The notes beneath the pieces were generated by a model. That model was not told the DNA's origin, searched no databases, and worked only from the letters and a program-made list of their open reading frames with translations. A stretch of DNA of 64,000 nt, taken from assembly GCA_015065455.1 (NCBI GenBank), contig SVQI01000004.1, positions 1-64,000 of the forward strand, written 5' to 3'. This DNA comes from Oscillospiraceae bacterium. Its GTDB lineage: Bacteria > Bacillota > Clostridia > Oscillospirales > CAG-272. A program made the translations under genes and the position numbers. Below are positions 38,810 to 48,275 of the stretch, in pieces (position 1 is the first letter of the stretch; every line of letters starts with the position of its first letter).

Positions 38810-39433
38810 ATGAAATTGTATGCATTTTTAAAAAAATTGGTACAAGGGTTTATTAAATTTCTTTTCAGAATAGAAGTGCAAGGCGAAGAGAATATTCCAA
38901 AAGAGGGCGCAGTGCTTGTGTGCCCGAACCATATATCCAACTGGGACCCGATAGTTCTTGGCGTTGTGTTTGACAGACAGATAAGATTTATGGCAAAGGC
39001 ATCGCTTTTTAAAATACCCTTGCTCAATGCTTTGATAAGAACGTTGGGTGCGTTTCCCGTAAAAAGAGGGGCGGCAGATCCTTCTGCAATAAAGACAGCA
39101 ATAAAGCTGTTGGGAGAAGGGGACGCTGTTGGTATGTTTCCTCAGGGAACTCGTTATATCGGAACAGAACCCGGTAATACCGAGGTGAAATCGGGCGTCG
39201 GAATGGTAGCGCATCGAGCAAATGTGGATGTTTTACCTGTACAGATAAAAACTAAGAATTATAGGATTTTACCGTTTCGCAAGGTGTATATAAAAATCGG
39301 TGATTGCATACCTAATTCTGAATTGGGAATTGAAAACGGCACCCGTGATGAGTACACGAATGCGTCACGTTATATTTTCGGCAAGATTCTTGACTTGGCA
39401 ACAGAGAATAGTGAAGAGGAAACTTTAAAATGA
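38810..39433 (+). CDS. plsC: 1-acyl-sn-glycerol-3-phosphate acyltransferase
   Basis: The 207-residue membrane-associated enzyme shows the acyltransferase motifs NHISNWD (HX4D, about residue 41) and FPQGTR (about 109), with a VKRGA segment between. It adds the second acyl chain to give phosphatidic acid. Its stop overlaps the start of the next gene by four bases, so the two are co-translated. Confidence 0.93.
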   Translation: MKLYAFLKKLVQGFIKFLFRIEVQGEENIPKEGAVLVCPNHISNWDPIVLGVVFDRQIRFMAKASLFKIPLLNALIRTLGAFPVKRGAADPSAIKTAIKLLGEGDAVGMFPQGTRYIGTEPGNTEVKSGVGMVAHRANVDVLPVQIKTKNYRILPFRKVYIKIGDCIPNSELGIENGTRDEYTNASRYIFGKILDLATENSEEETLK

Positions 39434-41499
39434 TTATAGAGGTTGCGAAAAATGCGGGATTTTGCTTTGGTGTAGACAGAGCGGTGGATTCCGTGTACAG
39501 ACTTATAGATGAAAATCCTAAAAGAAATATATATACTTTAGGGAATTTGATTCATAATCCGACGATATGTGAGGATCTTGAAGAAAAGAACGTAAGGGTT
39601 ATTTCTGAAGACGATTTAGATAAAGTTTTTGCTGAATGTAACGAGGATAATCCTTGCACGGTGGTAGTAAGAGCGCACGGCGTTACGAAAGATGTATACG
39701 AAAAATTAGAAGATTTTTCGAATAGAAACAGTAATTTTAATATGCTTGACTGCGCTTGTCCTTATGTGAAGAAGATACATAAGATAGTAAAGGATAATGC
39801 CGGGGAAGATACGTTGCTTTACGTGTACGGAGATCCAAATCATCCCGAGGTAAAAGGGATAGTAAGCTTTGCTAAGGGAGAAGTAGTTGTATTTTCAAAC
39901 GTAGCCGAGCTCGAAAAACAGCTTGCAAGTGATAAAAATGCACAAAAAAAGGTAATTGTAGTGTCTCAGACAACACAAAATCTAACAGAATGGAAAAAAA
40001 CACAAAAAATTCTTGAAAAAGTATATACAAATTCATATATTTTTGATACAATATGTTCTGTTACCGAAAATCGACAGATTGAAACTGAATTATTGGCGCA
40101 AAAAGTTGATTTTATGGTGATAATAGGGGGCAGAAACAGCTCCAATACAAACAAGCTTTTTGATACTGCGAGAAAATATCAACCAAATACTGTATTGGTT
40201 GAAAATGCGACGGAGCTTCGACTTGACTTGTTTAGAAATAATATGAAAGTGGGTATATCTGCAGGGGCATCGACTCCGGGCAGTATCATAGAGGAGGTAA
40301 AAAACAAAATGAGCGAAAACACAATGAACAACATCGAAAAGGATTTGACTCAGCAGTCCTTTGAAATAAACGATGAAAACAGCTTTGCTGCAATGCTTGA
40401 GGAATCTTTCAAAACTTTAAATACAGGTGAGATAGTAAAGGGTACCGTACTTGCGGTAAACTCTAACGAGGTTCAGGTAGACCTTGGTGCAAAGGTTACC
40501 GGTATCGTTCCTTACAGCGAGGTTTCCGAAAACCCGTCTGTTAAGCTTGAAGAAGAATTCAAGGTTGGCGATGAAATTGAAGTAATGGTTACAAGAGTAA
40601 GTGACATTGACGGTGTTGCATCACTTTCAAAGAAGAGAGTAGACGCTATTACAAACTGGAAGAATGTTGTTGAAAGCTTTAACGAAGGCAAGATTCTTAC
40701 AGGTAAGGTTACTGAGATTGTAAGAGGCGGAGTTATCGTAGTTGCAGAAGGACAGAAGCTTTTTGTTCCCGCATCACATTCCGGACTTGCAAAGGACGCT
40801 GATCTTTCAGTACTTAAGGGTACAGAACAGAGAGTAAAAATTATCGATATTAACGAACAGAGAAGAAGAGCTGTTGCATCTATCCGTATAGTTGCAAGAG
40901 AAGAAAAGAAAGCTGCAGAAGAAGCATTCTGGGCAAGTATTGAAAAAGACAAGAAATATGACGGTGTTGTTAAGTCAATTACAAATTACGGCGTATTTGT
41001 TGACCTCGGCGGTGTAGACGGAATGATCCACAGCACAGAACTTGCATGGACACATTTCAAGCATCCTTCCGAGATCGTATCCATCGGCGAAAAGCTTACA
41101 GTATACGTTAAGGATTTTGATGCTGAAGCAAAGAGAATTTCTCTCGGATACAAGACAGAGGAGAACAATCCTTGGAATATATTTGTTGAAAAGTACGCAG
41201 TTGGCGACGTTGCTACAGTTAAGGTAGTAAATATGATGCCTTTCGGTGCATTTGCAGAAGTTATTCCCGGAGTAGACGGACTTATCCACATTTCTCAGAT
41301 TGCAGACAAGAAGATCAATAAGCCTGCTGACATTCTCGAGCTTGGACAGGAAGTTGATGCAAAGATTACTGATATTGATACAGAAAACCACAAGATCAGC
41401 CTTTCCATCAGAGCTCTCATCGAAGAAGCAAAGGCAGCTGAAGAGGCTATGCCTGAAGATTACATACCCGATGAAGAGAAGGAAGAAGCAGCTGAATAA
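39430..41499 (+). CDS. ispH: Fusion of HMBPP reductase (IspH) and ribosomal protein S1
   Basis: The 689-residue fusion has IspH at residues 1-285 (Fe-S cysteines in AGFCFGV, DCACPYV and TICSVTENRQ; His in VVRAHGV and DPNHPE), which makes isopentenyl diphosphate. Four S1 RNA-binding domains follow from residue 330 (VLAVNSNEVQVDLGAKVTG, then VRGGVIVV, NYGVFVDLGGVDGMIHSTEL, PFGAFAEVIPGVDGLIHIS). This fusion is typical of Clostridia. A perfect GAGGAGG sits 11 bases before an in-frame ATG at 40309, the junction, so S1 could also be made alone. Confidence 0.93.
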   Translation: MIIEVAKNAGFCFGVDRAVDSVYRLIDENPKRNIYTLGNLIHNPTICEDLEEKNVRVISEDDLDKVFAECNEDNPCTVVVRAHGVTKDVYEKLEDFSNRNSNFNMLDCACPYVKKIHKIVKDNAGEDTLLYVYGDPNHPEVKGIVSFAKGEVVVFSNVAELEKQLASDKNAQKKVIVVSQTTQNLTEWKKTQKILEKVYTNSYIFDTICSVTENRQIETELLAQKVDFMVIIGGRNSSNTNKLFDTARKYQPNTVLVENATELRLDLFRNNMKVGISAGASTPGSIIEEVKNKMSENTMNNIEKDLTQQSFEINDENSFAAMLEESFKTLNTGEIVKGTVLAVNSNEVQVDLGAKVTGIVPYSEVSENPSVKLEEEFKVGDEIEVMVTRVSDIDGVASLSKKRVDAITNWKNVVESFNEGKILTGKVTEIVRGGVIVVAEGQKLFVPASHSGLAKDADLSVLKGTEQRVKIIDINEQRRRAVASIRIVAREEKKAAEEAFWASIEKDKKYDGVVKSITNYGVFVDLGGVDGMIHSTELAWTHFKHPSEIVSIGEKLTVYVKDFDAEAKRISLGYKTEENNPWNIFVEKYAVGDVATVKVVNMMPFGAFAEVIPGVDGLIHISQIADKKINKPADILELGQEVDAKITDIDTENHKISLSIRALIEEAKAAEEAMPEDYIPDEEKEEAAE
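40291..40311 (+). promoter_or_regulatory. Internal ribosome binding site at the IspH-S1 junction
   Basis: GAGGAGG at 40291-40297 is followed by ATG at 40309, in frame with the S1 part. It overlaps codons for a conserved Glu-Glu-Val at the end of IspH, so coincidence is possible. Confidence 0.4.
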
Positions 41500-41610: not shown

Positions 41611-43137
41611 ATGATGAATCCTAAGCTTAAAGAAAAAACCAAAGAATCGCTGACCGCCGTTCTTCCGATAACAGCAATAGTGCTACTGATAAGCGTGTTT
41701 CTTGTTCCTATGGAGCTTGGACATATAGTACTGTTTTTGTCGGGTGCTGTAATGCTTATATTCGGAATGGGACTGTTTCAGTTAGGAGCTGAGATGGCGA
41801 TGAGTCCCTTAGGAGAAGGAATAGGCGTTCAGATTTCAAAATCGAAGAAAGTGTTGATAATACTTTTTATCGGTTTTATTATGGGTTTTATAATTACTAT
41901 ATCCGAGCCCGACTTGCAGGTGTTGGCTGAGCAGGTTCCCGGCGTGCCGAACAGTGTGTTGATTTTGGCAGTAGCGGTGGGTGTAGGTGTATTTCTTGCA
42001 TTGTCAATCGCAAGAATAAGAGACCAGATAAGCTTATCGGCTATGTTAATTGTTTTTTATGTAGCGATGATTGGTTTATCCTTTTTGGTTCCAAAAAATT
42101 TCATAGCGGTTGCGTTTGACTCGGGCGGTGTAACAACAGGTCCTATGACAGTACCGTTTATTATGGCTATGGGTATTGGTCTTGCATCTGTTCGTGGTGA
42201 TAAGAATGCAGACAGCGATAGCTTCGGTCTTGTAGCTTTATCGAGTATTGGTCCGATATTGGCTGTAATGGTACTCGGTTGCTTTTTTAAACCGGGAGGC
42301 GCACAGTACAGCTTGACTGATATTCAAAGTGTTTCGACTACGAGGGATGTTGCAAACGTTTTTTTGCACGGTTTACCTGAATATGCTAAGGAAGTGTTAA
42401 TATCTCTTCTTCCGGTGTTGGCTGTATTTGTTGTTTTTCAGATTGTATGCAGAAGATATCACGGAAAGCAGATACTGAAGATAGTTATCGGTTTAGGCTA
42501 TACTTACACAGGACTTGTGCTGTTTTTGTGCGGTGTAAATTTAGGATTTGCGCCGGTTGGAGCCTTTCTTGGAGAAGAGCTTGCGTTGCTTGAATATAAA
42601 TGGATTTTGGTTCCCATAGGCATGCTGATAGGTTACTATATAGTAAAGGCAGAGCCTGCAATACAGATTTTGAACCATCAGGTTCAGAGTGTTACGGATG
42701 GAGCTATATCCGTAAAGGCGATGAATTCATGTATGTCAATAGGTGTGTCGGTGAGTGTAGGACTTGCGATGTTGAGAGTGCTTACGGGAATTCCGATACA
42801 ATATATAGTAATTCCGGGGTATATTCTTGCTCTTGTGATGTCCAAGTTCGTCCCCAAGATTTTTGTAGGTATTGCATTTGACTCGGGCGGCGTTGCCAGC
42901 GGACCGATGACCTCAACGTTTTTGATACCGCTAAGTATCGGCGTATGTCTTGCTGTTGGCGGAGATATAATGACAGATGCATTTGGCGTTGTTGCGTTGG
43001 TTGCTTTAACCCCGCTGATAGCTATACAGATTATGGGACTTGTATACAAATTCAAGACACAGAAGATCAATAAACAGGCAGACACTGTTGTTGTTCCTGA
43101 GGACAGTGATGAAATTATCGACTGGGAGGATGACTAA
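41611..43137 (+). CDS. DUF1538 family membrane protein
   Basis: The 508-residue protein has about 13 hydrophobic segments in two related halves. Each half holds GMGLFQLGAEMAM- or GVNLGFAPVGAFLG-type loops and a VAFDSGGVTTGPMT or IAFDSGGVASGPMT motif (around residues 165 and 425). The repeated DSGGVxxGPMT suggests paired re-entrant loops of a transporter or channel. The substrate is unknown. The next gene is a PII-like regulator, an association known for DUF1538. Confidence 0.85.
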   Translation: MMNPKLKEKTKESLTAVLPITAIVLLISVFLVPMELGHIVLFLSGAVMLIFGMGLFQLGAEMAMSPLGEGIGVQISKSKKVLIILFIGFIMGFIITISEPDLQVLAEQVPGVPNSVLILAVAVGVGVFLALSIARIRDQISLSAMLIVFYVAMIGLSFLVPKNFIAVAFDSGGVTTGPMTVPFIMAMGIGLASVRGDKNADSDSFGLVALSSIGPILAVMVLGCFFKPGGAQYSLTDIQSVSTTRDVANVFLHGLPEYAKEVLISLLPVLAVFVVFQIVCRRYHGKQILKIVIGLGYTYTGLVLFLCGVNLGFAPVGAFLGEELALLEYKWILVPIGMLIGYYIVKAEPAIQILNHQVQSVTDGAISVKAMNSCMSIGVSVSVGLAMLRVLTGIPIQYIVIPGYILALVMSKFVPKIFVGIAFDSGGVASGPMTSTFLIPLSIGVCLAVGGDIMTDAFGVVALVALTPLIAIQIMGLVYKFKTQKINKQADTVVVPEDSDEIIDWEDD

Positions 43138-43845: not shown

Positions 43846-43856
43846 AATACAGACAA

Positions 43857-43897
43857 ATAAACCGTCCTAAAATTTAGGGCGGTTTATTATATTTTTA
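43857..43897 (+). terminator. Intrinsic terminator
   Basis: AATAAACCGTCC and GGGCGGTTTATT form a stem with a T-rich tail after the PII-like gene. Confidence 0.8.
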
Positions 43898-44037: not shown

Positions 44038-44066
44038 TTGACGGATTGCTGTAATATGTATATAAT
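44038..44066 (+). promoter_or_regulatory. Upstream promoter of the pot operon (P1)
   Basis: TTGACG and TATAAT are separated by 17 bases. Use of it would give a leader of about 350 bases before potA. Confidence 0.65.
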
Positions 44067-44123
44067 AATATATTGTACACGAATAATAAAATATATAAAC
44101 GATTTTTGCATCTGTGCCAACAT

Positions 44124-44151
44124 TTTTGTCAAAAGCAAAGGTTTGACAAAA
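44124..44151 (+). promoter_or_regulatory. Perfect inverted repeat over the P2 -35 box
   Basis: TTTTGTCAAA and TTTGACAAAA are 10-base arms 8 bases apart. The right arm contains the TTGACA of promoter P2, as expected for a repressor operator. Confidence 0.5.
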
Positions 44152-44170
44152 TATATCATCGCCTTATAAA
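44143..44170 (+). promoter_or_regulatory. Downstream promoter of the pot operon (P2)
   Basis: TTGACA and TATAAA are separated by 16 bases, giving a leader of about 245 bases. Confidence 0.6.
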
Positions 44171-44176
44171 TGATGG

Positions 44177-44326
44177 GTAAATTTTATATTTACTTGAGGG
44201 TCAGATGTACATATCAGGGCAGTTCTTAACAAGAGCCGTGACTGACAAATGTGTCAGTTTGAGAAACCGAGTGCTGCAATTATGTTTAAGCTAAAATTGT
44301 TTTAGCGTATATATAGTTGTAACAAA
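44177..44326 (+). other. Structured upstream part of the pot leader
   Basis: No reading frame is convincing here. Hairpins are visible at 44222-44236 (GTTCTT/AAGAGC), 44241-44258 (ACTGACA/TGTCAGT) and 44290-44306 (GCTAAAA/TTTTAGC). The last lacks a T run, so it is not an ordinary terminator. Confidence 0.45.
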
Positions 44327-44411
44327 CTCTTTGCGGGGGCATCGGTTAGCCCGATATGGGGTTCGCGCAGAGCTTAACAGAAGCTGTACGCGGTCTTTAC
44401 CGCAAAGGGGG
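44327..44411 (+). ncRNA. Three-way-junction RNA covering the potA ribosome binding site
   Basis: A 10-base-pair closing stem (44327-44336 with 44400-44409) encloses two hairpins: 44341-44355 (ATCGG/CCGAT) and 44364-44392 (CGCG/CGCG with inner AGCTT/AAGCT). The 3' strand of the closing stem contains the Shine-Dalgarno AAAGGGGG of potA. Folding would block translation, so a ligand-, protein- or temperature-controlled switch is plausible. It did not match any riboswitch class I can recall. Confidence 0.55.
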
Positions 44412-44420
44412 ATGCAAAAA

Positions 44421-45542
44421 ATGAATTCTAAAAACATTATTGAACTTAAGAACATCACCGTAGAGTTTGATGGAGAAAAAGTGCTTGACGATTTGAACTT
44501 GTCAATAAAGGACAAGGAATTTGTTACGCTTTTGGGGCAGTCCGGTTGTGGAAAAACCACTACACTCAGGATAATTGCCGGATTTATCCAACCTCAGACG
44601 GGCGATGTTTTTTTTGACGGAAAGTCAGTAAAGGGAATACCGCCTTATCAGAGACCCGTCAACACCGTATTCCAGAGATACGCATTGTTTCCAAACTACA
44701 ACGTATATGACAATATTGCATTCGGATTGCGCGTAAGCAAGGTTCCCGAAAAGGAAATTGAACAGAGAGTAAAGGAAATGCTTGCACTTGTAAATCTTCA
44801 AGGGTTTGAAAAGAGAAGTGTAGCGAAATTATCAGGTGGACAGCAGCAGAGAGTTGCTATTGCAAGAGCTGTTGTAAATCAGCCGAAGGTGTTGTTGCTT
44901 GACGAACCGTTGGCAGCACTTGACTTAAAGCTTCGTAAGGATATGCAGAACGAACTTAAGAACATTCAGAGAAAGCTCGGCATAACCTTTATATATGTAA
45001 CACACGATCAGGAAGAAGCATTGTCTTTGTCCGATACTGTTGTTGTTATGCACGAGGGAAAAATACAGCAGATAGGAACACCTATTGATATATATAACGA
45101 ACCCGAAAATGCATTTGTTGCCGACTTTATAGGCGAGTCAAATATTATTGACGGCAATATGATAAGCGATTATAAGGTTTCGTTAGTTGGAAAGACTTTT
45201 GACTGCCTTGATAAAGGCTTTGAAGCGAACGAGCCTGTTGACGTTGTAATCAGACCAGAGGACGTGGATATTGTACCCGTTGAAAAGGGAATGCTTGTAG
45301 GAGAGGTTACGTCTGTACTTTTCCGCGGTGTTCATTTTGAGATAATTATTGACGTTGCAGGATTCAAGTGGATGATTCAGACGACTGACGAAAGTAAGGT
45401 CGGAGATACTGTTGGTCTCTATATTGAGCCCGACGCTATTCACGTAATGAAGAAGTCAAAATATTCCGGTAAATACGGAGATTACAGCTCATACAGTGAC
45501 GAAATGGATAAGATGAGTGAAATCGAAGAGGTAGACGAATGA
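44421..45542 (+). CDS. potA: Spermidine/putrescine ABC transporter ATP-binding protein
   Basis: The ATG at 44421 is chosen, with AAAGGGGG 9 bases upstream, giving 373 residues. Walker A is GQSGCGKTT (about residues 37-45), the signature LSGGQQQR (about 135) and Walker [12 protein letters not shown] (about 155), followed by the H-loop YVTHD and a C-terminal TOBE-like domain ([11 protein letters not shown]). It energises polyamine uptake with potB, potC and potD. Confidence 0.93.
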
Positions 45543-46360
45543 ACAAGAAAAGACTTGGTTCAATTGCTTTGAATTCACCGTATACAGTGTGGTCGGTAAT
45601 ATTTATCGTTGTTCCGCTTTTTATAGTTGCATACTATGCCTTTACCGATAAGAGCGGCGCTTTTACTATTGATAATATAGTACAGCTGAAAGAGTATAAA
45701 GAGATATTCGGAATATCTATTTTGTATTCGGTGATAGCAACTTTGATTACGTTATTGATAAGCTATCCTTTTGCTTATTTTTTGAGCAGACAGAGTGAAA
45801 TGTCAAGAAGACTTCAGATGATGCTTGTAATGCTTCCTATGTGGATGAATCTTCTTATAAGAACGTATTCGTGGATGAATATTCTTGAAAGAAACGGACT
45901 TATAAATAATTTCCTTGGGATGTTTGGCATAGAACCCATAAAGATGATAGGTACTCCGGGAGCCGTAATCTTCGGTATGGTGTATAATTATCTTCCATAT
46001 ATGATATTGCCGATATATACGGTAATGTCAAAGATAGAGCCCTCGTTGCTTGAAGCGGCAGAGGACCTGGGTTGCAACGGATTCAATAAGCTCAGAAGAG
46101 TTATAATGCCTCTCAGCTTACCCGGTGTTGTATCGGGAATAACAATGGTGTTCGTTCCGTCGGTCAGTACGTTTTACATCAGTCAGAAGCTCGGTGACGG
46201 AAAGATAACTCTTGTGGGTGATGCAATAGAAAGACAGATGCAGACGTCATATAACTATAACCTCGGCGCATCTATATCACTCGTTTTGATGGTGATGATT
46301 TTGATCAGTGTTGCTGTGATGAACAGATTTTCTGATGAAGATGGAGGTATGGTTGTATGA
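45539..46360 (+). CDS. potB: Spermidine/putrescine ABC transporter permease
   Basis: The 273-residue protein has six transmembrane segments. The inner-membrane permease loop [27 protein letters not shown] (EAA motif, around residues 163-189) contacts Pot[13 protein letters not shown] with ILERNG resembles PotB and PotH proteins. It overlaps potA and potC by four bases on each side, so the operon is translationally coupled. Confidence 0.92.
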
Positions 46361-47166
46361 AAACGTTTGGAAAGATATTCAATTTCTGCGTTTATTTTCT
46401 GCTGTACGCGCCTCTGTTGATAATGGTGTTTTTTAGTTTTAACGAATCTAAGAGCACGTCTGTGTTTACAGGTTTTTCGTTAAAATGGTATAACGAGCTT
46501 TTTTCAAAGAGCGACATAATGGAAGCTTTGAGGAATACTATCGTGTTAGCGGTAGCATCAGCTTTTATAGCTACGATACTCGGTACCGTTGCGGCAGTTG
46601 GATTATACAAGATGAGGAATAAGTATTTGTATAATACAATGAATACCGTAACCAATATACCTATGATGAATCCCGATATCGTAACGGGCGTATCTTTAAT
46701 GCTTTTGTTCGTATTTGCGGGCAAACTGCTCGGATTAAGCGAGTATCTGAACTTTTTTACACTTTTGATATCACATATAACGTTTAATATACCGTACGTT
46801 ATATTGAACGTATTACCCAAACTTCGTCAGACCGACGAGCATTTGTACGAGGCTGCGATGGATTTGGGATGTACTCCTATAAGAGCGTTCTTTAAGGTTG
46901 TAATGCCTGCGATAATGCCGGGTGTTATTTCGGGAGCGCTTATGTCGTTTACGTTGTCGCTTGACGATTTCGTAATAAGCTATTATACGACGGGAGCTGA
47001 TTTTCAGACGTTGCCGCTCAAGATTTTTGCGATGACAAAGAAAACGGTAAAACCCGATATGTACGCGCTTTCCACACTTATATTTGTTACTATTCTTGTA
47101 TTGCTTATAGTAATAAATATTGTTCAGGAGAGATCGGAGAGAAAGTTAAAAGGTGATAATAAATGA
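46357..47166 (+). CDS. potC: Spermidine/putrescine ABC transporter permease
   Basis: The 269-residue protein has six transmembrane segments and the EAA motif YEAAMDLGCTPIRAFFKVVMPAIMPG (about residues 165-190). An N-terminal FFSFNESKSTSVFTGFSLKWY block and a SLDDFVISYYTTG loop are typical of PotC and PotI. Four-base overlaps link it to potB and potD. Confidence 0.92.
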   Translation: MKTFGKIFNFCVYFLLYAPLLIMVFFSFNESKSTSVFTGFSLKWYNELFSKSDIMEALRNTIVLAVASAFIATILGTVAAVGLYKMRNKYLYNTMNTVTNIPMMNPDIVTGVSLMLLFVFAGKLLGLSEYLNFFTLLISHITFNIPYVILNVLPKLRQTDEHLYEAAMDLGCTPIRAFFKVVMPAIMPGVISGALMSFTLSLDDFVISYYTTGADFQTLPLKIFAMTKKTVKPDMYALSTLIFVTILVLLIVINIVQERSERKLKGDNK

Positions 47167-48275
47167 AGAAAATTACAGCACTGCTTCTTGCGGTTGTTAT
47201 GATGGTTTCTATGTCTTGTCTTGCTTCATGCGGAAAGACCAACGATACAGTAAAGAACCTTGAGGGAACGTATAGCCGTGAATATGAGGGCACGACTCTT
47301 AACGTGTTCAACTGGGGTGAATATATATCAGACGGAAGCGAAGGCTCGCTTGACGTTAATAAGGCTTTTGAAAAGATTACGGGAATAAAGGTTAATTACA
47401 GTCTTTATGAAAGCAACGAGGCAATGTATGCCAAGATGAAGAGCGAAGCCGTTTCATACGATATAGTTATTCCTTCGGATTATATGATCGAAAGACTTAA
47501 GAACGAAGATATGCTTCAGAAGATTGATAACACAAAGCTTTCAAACTACAAGTATATCGACGAAGAATATAAGGGCTTATATTTTGACGAAAATAATGAA
47601 TATTCCGTTCCTTACAGCGTAGGTATGGTAGGTCTTATTTATAATACGACTATGGTAAAAGAAGCGCCTACAAGCTGGAACGTAATGTGGGATAAGAAAT
47701 ATAAAGAAAATATTCTTACTTTCAACAATCCCAGAGATGCTTTTGCGATATCTCAGTTTTTATTAGGAATTGATTTGAATACTACCGACAAGGCTGAATG
47801 GGATAAGGCTGCTGCAAAGCTGAAAGAACAGAATTCTGTTTTGCAGGGAAGAGTAATGGACCAGGTGTTTAATAAGATGGAAGGCGGAAATGCCGCTATC
47901 GCACCTTATTATGCAGGTGACTTTTTAACGATGCAGAGCAACAATGAAGATCTTGCATTTGTATATCCCAAAGAGGGAACGAATATTTTCGTAGATTCTA
48001 TTTGTATTCCGAAAAATGCCAAGAATTATGAAGCAGCTATGATGTATATAAACTTTATGCTTGAGCCTGAGGTAGCGCTTGCAAATGCTGAGTATATTTG
48101 CTATGCATCGCCTAATACAGCTGTTGTTAATAACGAAGATTATTCTTTAAAGGATAATGAGATTCTTTATCCGGCTGAAGATAAGAAACCCAAGACACAG
48201 TATTTCCACGATCTTCCCTCTGAAATCCGCGGCTATTATGAAAAGCTTTGGGAAGAAATATTGATTGAATCATAA
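47163..48275 (+). CDS. potD: Spermidine/putrescine-binding lipoprotein
   Basis: The 370-residue lipoprotein has lipobox LASC (Cys23), then the mature binding protein with LNVFNWGEYISDGS (about residue 43), YDIVIPSDYMIERL (about 99) and VPYSVGMVGLIYNT (about 140), the PotD/PotF pattern. It binds polyamine outside the membrane. It is last in the operon, as is usual in Firmicutes, and a terminator follows. Confidence 0.93.
   Translation: MKKITALLLAVVMMVSMSCLASCGKTNDTVKNLEGTYSREYEGTTLNVFNWGEYISDGSEGSLDVNKAFEKITGIKVNYSLYESNEAMYAKMKSEAVSYDIVIPSDYMIERLKNEDMLQKIDNTKLSNYKYIDEEYKGLYFDENNEYSVPYSVGMVGLIYNTTMVKEAPTSWNVMWDKKYKENILTFNNPRDAFAISQFLLGIDLNTTDKAEWDKAAAKLKEQNSVLQGRVMDQVFNKMEGGNAAIAPYYAGDFLTMQSNNEDLAFVYPKEGTNIFVDSICIPKNAKNYEAAMMYINFMLEPEVALANAEYICYASPNTAVVNNEDYSLKDNEILYPAEDKKPKTQYFHDLPSEIRGYYEKLWEEILIES

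What the first reader, a model, noticed from the sequence alone, without database searches (positions are those of the whole stretch)
44327..44420. Candidate riboswitch: three-way junction covering the potA ribosome binding site
A 10-base-pair stem including AAAGGGGG closes a junction with two clear hairpins, directly before a polyamine uptake operon. It does not match the riboswitch classes I can recall, including SAM-III, which has a similar SD-blocking logic. Feedback by spermidine or putrescine is the obvious hypothesis.
Basis: partly seen in the sequence, partly recalled or inferred. Interest (0 to 1): 0.65.

Follow-up and report, generated by a model that had tools for sequence, protein, structure and literature searches.

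The report
Unlisted pseudoknotted RNA controlling polyamine uptake
The stretch in front of the polyamine-uptake genes of this gut bacterium encodes a large folded RNA, kept by evolution in many related gut Clostridia and absent from the RNA-family catalogue, that hides the ribosome-binding site and start codon and so probably works as a switch for polyamine import.

Summary
The leader has no Rfam match. Homologues were found in well over 100 genomes: mostly the window's order (the public records name Gemmiger, Faecalibacterium, Fournierella, Pygmaiobacter, Caproiciproducens, Acetanaerobacterium and others), plus a few other Clostridia orders. Every convincing copy sits directly before potA. 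The same bases pair instead with 44265-44270 (95%; two-sided changes at all 7 pairs), beneath a second long-range helix, 44210-44215/44353-44358. Pairing beats all 500 shuffles and every slid control. Most likely it is a translation-OFF switch; a polyamine ligand is inferred from gene context alone. It is not the known spermidine riboswitch (a SAM-I variant), not SAM-III, and has no conserved leader peptide. This is a strong orphan riboswitch candidate; ligand and switching are untested.

The parts
44038..44066 (+). promoter TTGACG-17-TATAAT; transcript start expected near 44073
   Evidence: 11 of 12 matches; promoter blocks also visible upstream of the homologous leaders
44103..44112 (+). H1 5' strand UUUUUGCAUC (5' end of transcript)
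   Evidence: invariant core in 33 aligned leaders; GCATC within 60 nt of a recognisable -10 box in 78 of 111 leaders, median 15 nt; forms in the MFE of the window leader
44411..44420 (+). H1 3' strand GAUGCAAAAA, the spacer between SD and start codon
44210..44215 (+). H2 5' strand (CAUAUC)
   Evidence: two-sided changes in 5 of 6 pairs, 91% paired; among the strongest covarying column pairs
44353..44358 (+). H2 3' strand (GAUAUG)
44222..44236 (+). H3 hairpin GUUC/GAGC
   Evidence: 99% paired, covarying
44241..44258 (+). H4 hairpin ACUGAC/GUCAGU
   Evidence: 6 of 6 pairs with two-sided changes
44265..44270 (+).
   Evidence: with the next column, 7 of 7 pairs with two-sided changes, 93% paired; top-ranked in unbiased column-pair scan; equivalent helix in group B
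44342..44347 (+).
44275..44321 (+). H6 hairpin (UGCAAUUAU ... AUAGUUGUA), inner pairs variable
   Evidence: 70% paired overall, base of stem well kept; equivalent 92% paired in group B
44327..44336 (+).
   Evidence: compensatory GCGG:CCGC to GUCA:UGAC in L035 and L168
44400..44409 (+). H7 3' strand CCGCAAAGGG, holds the SD
44364..44392 (+).
   Evidence: 99% and 81% paired
44390..44403 (+). possible ON-state hairpin GCGGU(CUUU)ACCGC, exclusive with H7
   Evidence: 98% paired in 33 leaders of the window's group, little variation; mostly absent in the other groups
44404..44411 (+). Shine-Dalgarno AAAGGGGG
   Evidence: sequence
44421..45542 (+). potA, polyamine ABC transporter ATPase
   Evidence: NCBIfam NF043075 556.3 bits (cut-off 550), TIGR01187 above cut-off
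45539..46360 (+). potB permease
   Evidence: best match PotB model, below its cut-off
46357..47166 (+). potC permease
   Evidence: best match PotC model, below its cut-off
47163..48275 (+). potD-like substrate-binding protein
   Evidence: best match PotD model E=2.8e-60, below its cut-off

Best explanation
The potA leader (about 44100-44423) is a cis-regulatory RNA, most likely a riboswitch of a class not in Rfam, that turns polyamine import off. In the OFF state its 5' end pairs with the SD-start spacer (H1), two long-range helices (H2, H5) build a core, and a sequence in the H5 loop (CUUUGCGG) pairs with CCGCAAAG next to the start (H7), making a pseudoknot that buries the Shine-Dalgarno sequence. 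When the signal is scarce H7 and H1 open (in the window's group perhaps through the competing hairpin GCGGU:ACCGC) and potABCD is translated. The signal is probably a polyamine (spermidine or putrescine) bound directly. Shown: conservation, covariation, position, gene association, SD and spacer within conserved helices. Inferred: coexistence of H7 with H2/H5, the switching, the direction of control and the ligand.
For: A DNA pattern carrying no gene information retrieved 116 public stretches; of 140 matches to a relaxed pattern in all loci held, 128 lie directly upstream of potA and the other 12 look like chance matches. R1 and R2 hits of good score are all before potA. Unbiased covariation scan puts H4, H5, H3 and H2 at or near the top of 34968 column pairs. 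Structure count: 90.8% paired vs 40-51% when slid, 192 two-sided changes vs 61.5 shuffled, 0/500; group B alone: 83.4% paired vs 38-49% slid, 51 vs 27.0, 0/500. SD and spacer >90% paired at most positions in the predicted ensemble. Operon is a polyamine importer. Genome lacks speE and agmatinase and has only a sub-cut-off nspC match, so import should matter. No intrinsic terminator was found within the leader, which fits translational control.
Against: No ligand or switching data. H1 and H7 hardly vary, and H7 and the GATG of H1 are partly fixed by the search pattern, so their support rests on complementarity, the independent conservation of GCATC at the 5' end, and the GUCA:UGAC variant. Only one kind of downstream gene, so the ligand cannot be triangulated. 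Most family-mates examined carry potA with other leaders. H7 and H2/H5 could be alternatives rather than one pseudoknot.
Confidence: 0.6

Rival explanations
1. The leader is a riboswitch but for another signal linked to uptake need (an ion such as Mg2+ or K+, a nucleotide, a SAM-related compound or an uncommon amine), not spermidine or putrescine.
For: Size (up to ~400 nt) and many conserved unpaired blocks suggest an elaborate pocket or two inputs.
Against: Every convincing copy is on a polyamine importer and none on ion, nucleotide or methionine genes.
Confidence: 0.2
2. The leader is read by a protein or small RNA (a repressor or RNA chaperone that binds the fold), so it is a structured regulatory leader but not a riboswitch.
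For: Structured leaders bound by proteins are common; nothing here demonstrates a small-molecule pocket.
Against: No regulator gene is linked to the operon in the window; the conservation spreads over ~300 nt, more than a typical protein site (general knowledge).
Confidence: 0.13
3. One reading: an isolated three-way junction at 44327-44420 with P1, local P2 and P3.
For: It is the MFE-like fold of the segment in the window genus (P2 5/5 pairs in L001, L003, L005, L064).
Against: P2 keeps 53% of pairs across 33 leaders while the distal pairing keeps 95% with two-sided changes.
Confidence: 0.04
4. A leader peptide (uORF beginning AUGUAC just before H2) controls potA by ribosome stalling.
For: AUGUAC is conserved in many group C leaders, and the window frame encodes 29 aa.
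Against: The frame, length (4 to 108 aa) and sequence are not conserved even within the genus; the bases are explained by H2 and its flank.
Confidence: 0.03

Closest known systems
Spermidine riboswitch, variant of SAM-I (Salvail et al. 2023, PMC10853860)
   Same: Proposed ligand and logic: polyamine-responsive OFF switch on polyamine genes in bacteria.
   Different: That class is a SAM-I aptamer acting by transcription termination on polyamine biosynthesis genes; here no SAM-I match up to E=10 in the window leader, different helices and pseudoknot, SD masking, and an uptake operon.
SD-masking pseudoknot riboswitches (preQ1-II/III, SAM-II; general knowledge)
   Same: An H-type pseudoknot whose 3' strand holds the Shine-Dalgarno sequence.
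   Different: No Rfam match; ~320 nt with extra long-range helices and a 5'-end/start-codon closing stem.
SAM-III
   Same: SD sequestered in an outer stem of a junction.
   Different: No Rfam match; the local junction is not the conserved structure.
potE and odc1 motifs (PMC8632094)
   Same: Structured RNA candidates near polyamine genes.
   Different: potE motif lies some 200 nt from potE, a different transporter, with weak covariation; odc1 is on ornithine decarboxylase genes. Neither is described on potA.

Membership tests
Riboswitch (general kind) | Conserved structured RNA in the 5' UTR of a metabolically coherent gene | tested here: met
Riboswitch (general kind) | Expression platform (SD or terminator inside the fold) | tested here: met
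   SD in H7 and spacer in H1, computed and conserved; switching itself not tested
Riboswitch (general kind) | Direct, selective small-molecule binding that changes expression | not testable with these tools
   needs in-line probing and reporters
SAM-I-variant spermidine riboswitch | SAM-I aptamer architecture | tested here: not met
   No SAM-I family match in the window leader up to E=10, nor in the loci L006-L010 (E up to 10) or 16 further loci (E up to 1)
SAM-I-variant spermidine riboswitch | Control by premature transcription termination | tested here: not met
   no terminator-like site between promoter and potA; the only one found is at 43856-43888, upstream of the promoter
SAM-III (S-MK box) | Match to the family's covariance model | tested here: not met
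preQ1-II/III or other Rfam pseudoknot riboswitch | Match to the family's covariance model | tested here: not met
T-box leader | Match to the T-box covariance model | tested here: not met
   no T-box match in Rfam scans of the leaders
Leader-peptide attenuator | Conserved short ORF | tested here: not met

The most novel reading that the evidence does not exclude
A new, structurally independent class of polyamine-sensing riboswitch: a large pseudoknotted aptamer that shuts translation of the potABCD importer, unrelated to the SAM-I-derived spermidine riboswitch, present in many human- and ruminant-gut Clostridia including Faecalibacterium and Gemmiger.
Probability: 0.5. Interest if true: 0.85.

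Novelty: new member of a known kind. Interest (0 to 1): 0.7.

Why it matters
Polyamine riboswitches were long sought, and the study read here says earlier evidence was not convincing; it describes one rare class, a SAM-I variant with 13 examples (PMC10853860). A separate, widespread class on an importer would show RNA evolved polyamine sensing more than once and explain how gut Clostridia tune polyamine uptake. Even without the ligand, this is a large orphan regulatory RNA with strong covariation, ready for direct testing.

Tried and rejected
Rfam scans at gathering and permissive thresholds on the window, on divergent leaders and on the alternative leaders gave nothing that explains the element. 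The local P2 hairpin was tested and rejected as conserved. A uORF was tested and rejected. A first statistic (best helix of the inner strand against the species' own upstream region versus other species') was only mildly informative, because relatives share sequence; it was replaced by the column-pair scan and the counting tool. Group A leaders aligned too poorly for a clean scan, though H5 is visible by eye. R2 hits in class and phylum weaker than about E=1e-5 are not before potA. Literature searches found no description of a potA leader RNA; the library lacks most subscription papers and preprints, so absence there is not proof.

Full report
Observation. The segment is more stable than all 200 shuffles (z -3.24). 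Rfam gives nothing, at gathering level for the whole window or, beyond one chance microRNA match, at E up to 10 for the leader.

Homologues. A DNA search of 59 relatives found the element in all four same-genus genomes and in five other genera of the family, before potA wherever the contig continues. Aligning the upstream DNA showed that conservation does not stop at 44327: it comes in blocks back to ACGATTTTTGCATCTGTG at about 44099-44116, downstream of the promoter 44038-44066. A covariance model of the 3' part (R1) found the element in 23 of 394 genomes of the order, in four families, all before potA; two weak matches were false. One scan of public genomes with a pattern holding only the P1 halves and GATG returned 116 stretches. 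Counting all loci held, 128 of 140 matches to a relaxed pattern are directly upstream of potA; the other 12 are elsewhere, those named being in unrelated organisms, roughly the number expected by chance. After de-duplication there are 116 leaders. R2 (100 sequences) added potA leaders in three families of other orders of Clostridia and four more in the order, and nothing convincing elsewhere in the phylum.

Structure. On 33 non-redundant leaders of the window's group, an unbiased scan of 34968 column pairs (G statistic with average-product correction) put hairpin H4, the long-range helix H5 and hairpin H3 at the top, with helix H2 close behind. The local P2 keeps 53% of its pairs across these leaders, the distal pairing 95%. 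On a sequence-only alignment the full model has 90.8% of cells paired against 40-51% when partners are slid, and 192 two-sided changes against 61.5 in shuffles, with 0/500 reaching the observed values; H5 has two-sided changes in all 7 pairs, H4 in 6 of 6, H2 in 5 of 6. The more compact group B (17 sequences) independently supports the H5 equivalent (85% paired, two-sided changes in 6 of 9 pairs) and, less cleanly, H2.

Pseudoknot and start masking. Only a few bases separate the H7 5' strand from the H5 3' strand, as expected of stacked helices (inference). H7 is nearly invariant, partly because the public scan required it, but two genomes found by the models (L035, L168) replace GCGG:CCGC by GUCA:UGAC, keeping all pairs. 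H1 joins UUUUUGCAUC at the 5' end to GAUGCAAAAA between SD and start codon. GAUG was in the search pattern but GCATC was not; GCATC nevertheless lies within 60 nt of a recognisable -10 box in 78 of 111 leaders. Thermodynamic folding of the whole window leader, which cannot include pseudoknots, already forms H1 and H7 and leaves the SD and spacer almost fully paired.

Function. The operon encodes PotA, two permeases and a PotD-like binding protein. The genome (97% complete) has no spermidine synthase or agmatinase hit and only a sub-cut-off match for carboxynorspermidine decarboxylase, probably a related decarboxylase; it has one ornithine/lysine/arginine-decarboxylase-type gene. Import therefore probably matters. 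With SD and spacer inside conserved helices and no terminator in the leader, translation control is the best reading. In the window's group a competing hairpin GCGGU:ACCGC (44390-44403; 98% paired) could free the SD; it is mostly absent from groups A and B, so it cannot be the general ON state.

Comparison. The known bacterial spermidine riboswitch is a SAM-I variant that terminates transcription of polyamine-synthesis genes (PMC10853860). Ours fails both its architecture and its mechanism, so it may work like it but is not a member. SAM-III, preQ1 classes and T-box are excluded by the Rfam scans. The potE and odc1 candidates of PMC8632094 are on other genes. No paper in the searched library describes a potA leader RNA, but that library is incomplete.

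Limits. The ligand, the switch and the simultaneous presence of H7 with H2/H5 are not shown. Conservation of H7 is inflated by the search pattern. The shuffles ignore phylogeny; the slid controls and the independent group B answer this only in part. Most family-mates examined have potA with different leaders, so the element is patchy within its own family.

Noticed in passing
L182, L186, L188, L190, L193, L194, L195, L196, L197 (potA leaders of family-mates without this element): Their potA leaders end in related sequences, in most of them close to AAGGAGUAUUUAUGCGGAAUG; a different recurrent start region on the same operon.
   Followed up: partly
L187, L192; and L181, L189, L200: Other potA leaders carry terminator-like hairpins followed by U-runs (CGGAAAAAG..UUUUCCG-UUUUUU; and ..GGGUGUUUUUUUCUUG), suggesting independent transcription attenuators on the same operon. 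No convincing Rfam match.
   Followed up: partly
41611-43137: DUF1538 protein with two repeats matching both subunits of the UmpAB Na/Li/K antiporter, apparently a natural fusion, upstream of the pot operon.
   Followed up: no
39430-41499: One ORF looks like an IspH (HMBPP reductase) domain followed by S1 RNA-binding repeats (recognised by eye).
   Followed up: no
44412-44423: Two in-frame ATGs (AUGCAAAAAAUG); the first abuts the SD, so the second is the likely start.
   Followed up: no
L035, L168: Leaders in which the otherwise invariant GCGG:CCGC of H7 is GUCA:UGAC, fully compensated.
   Followed up: yes
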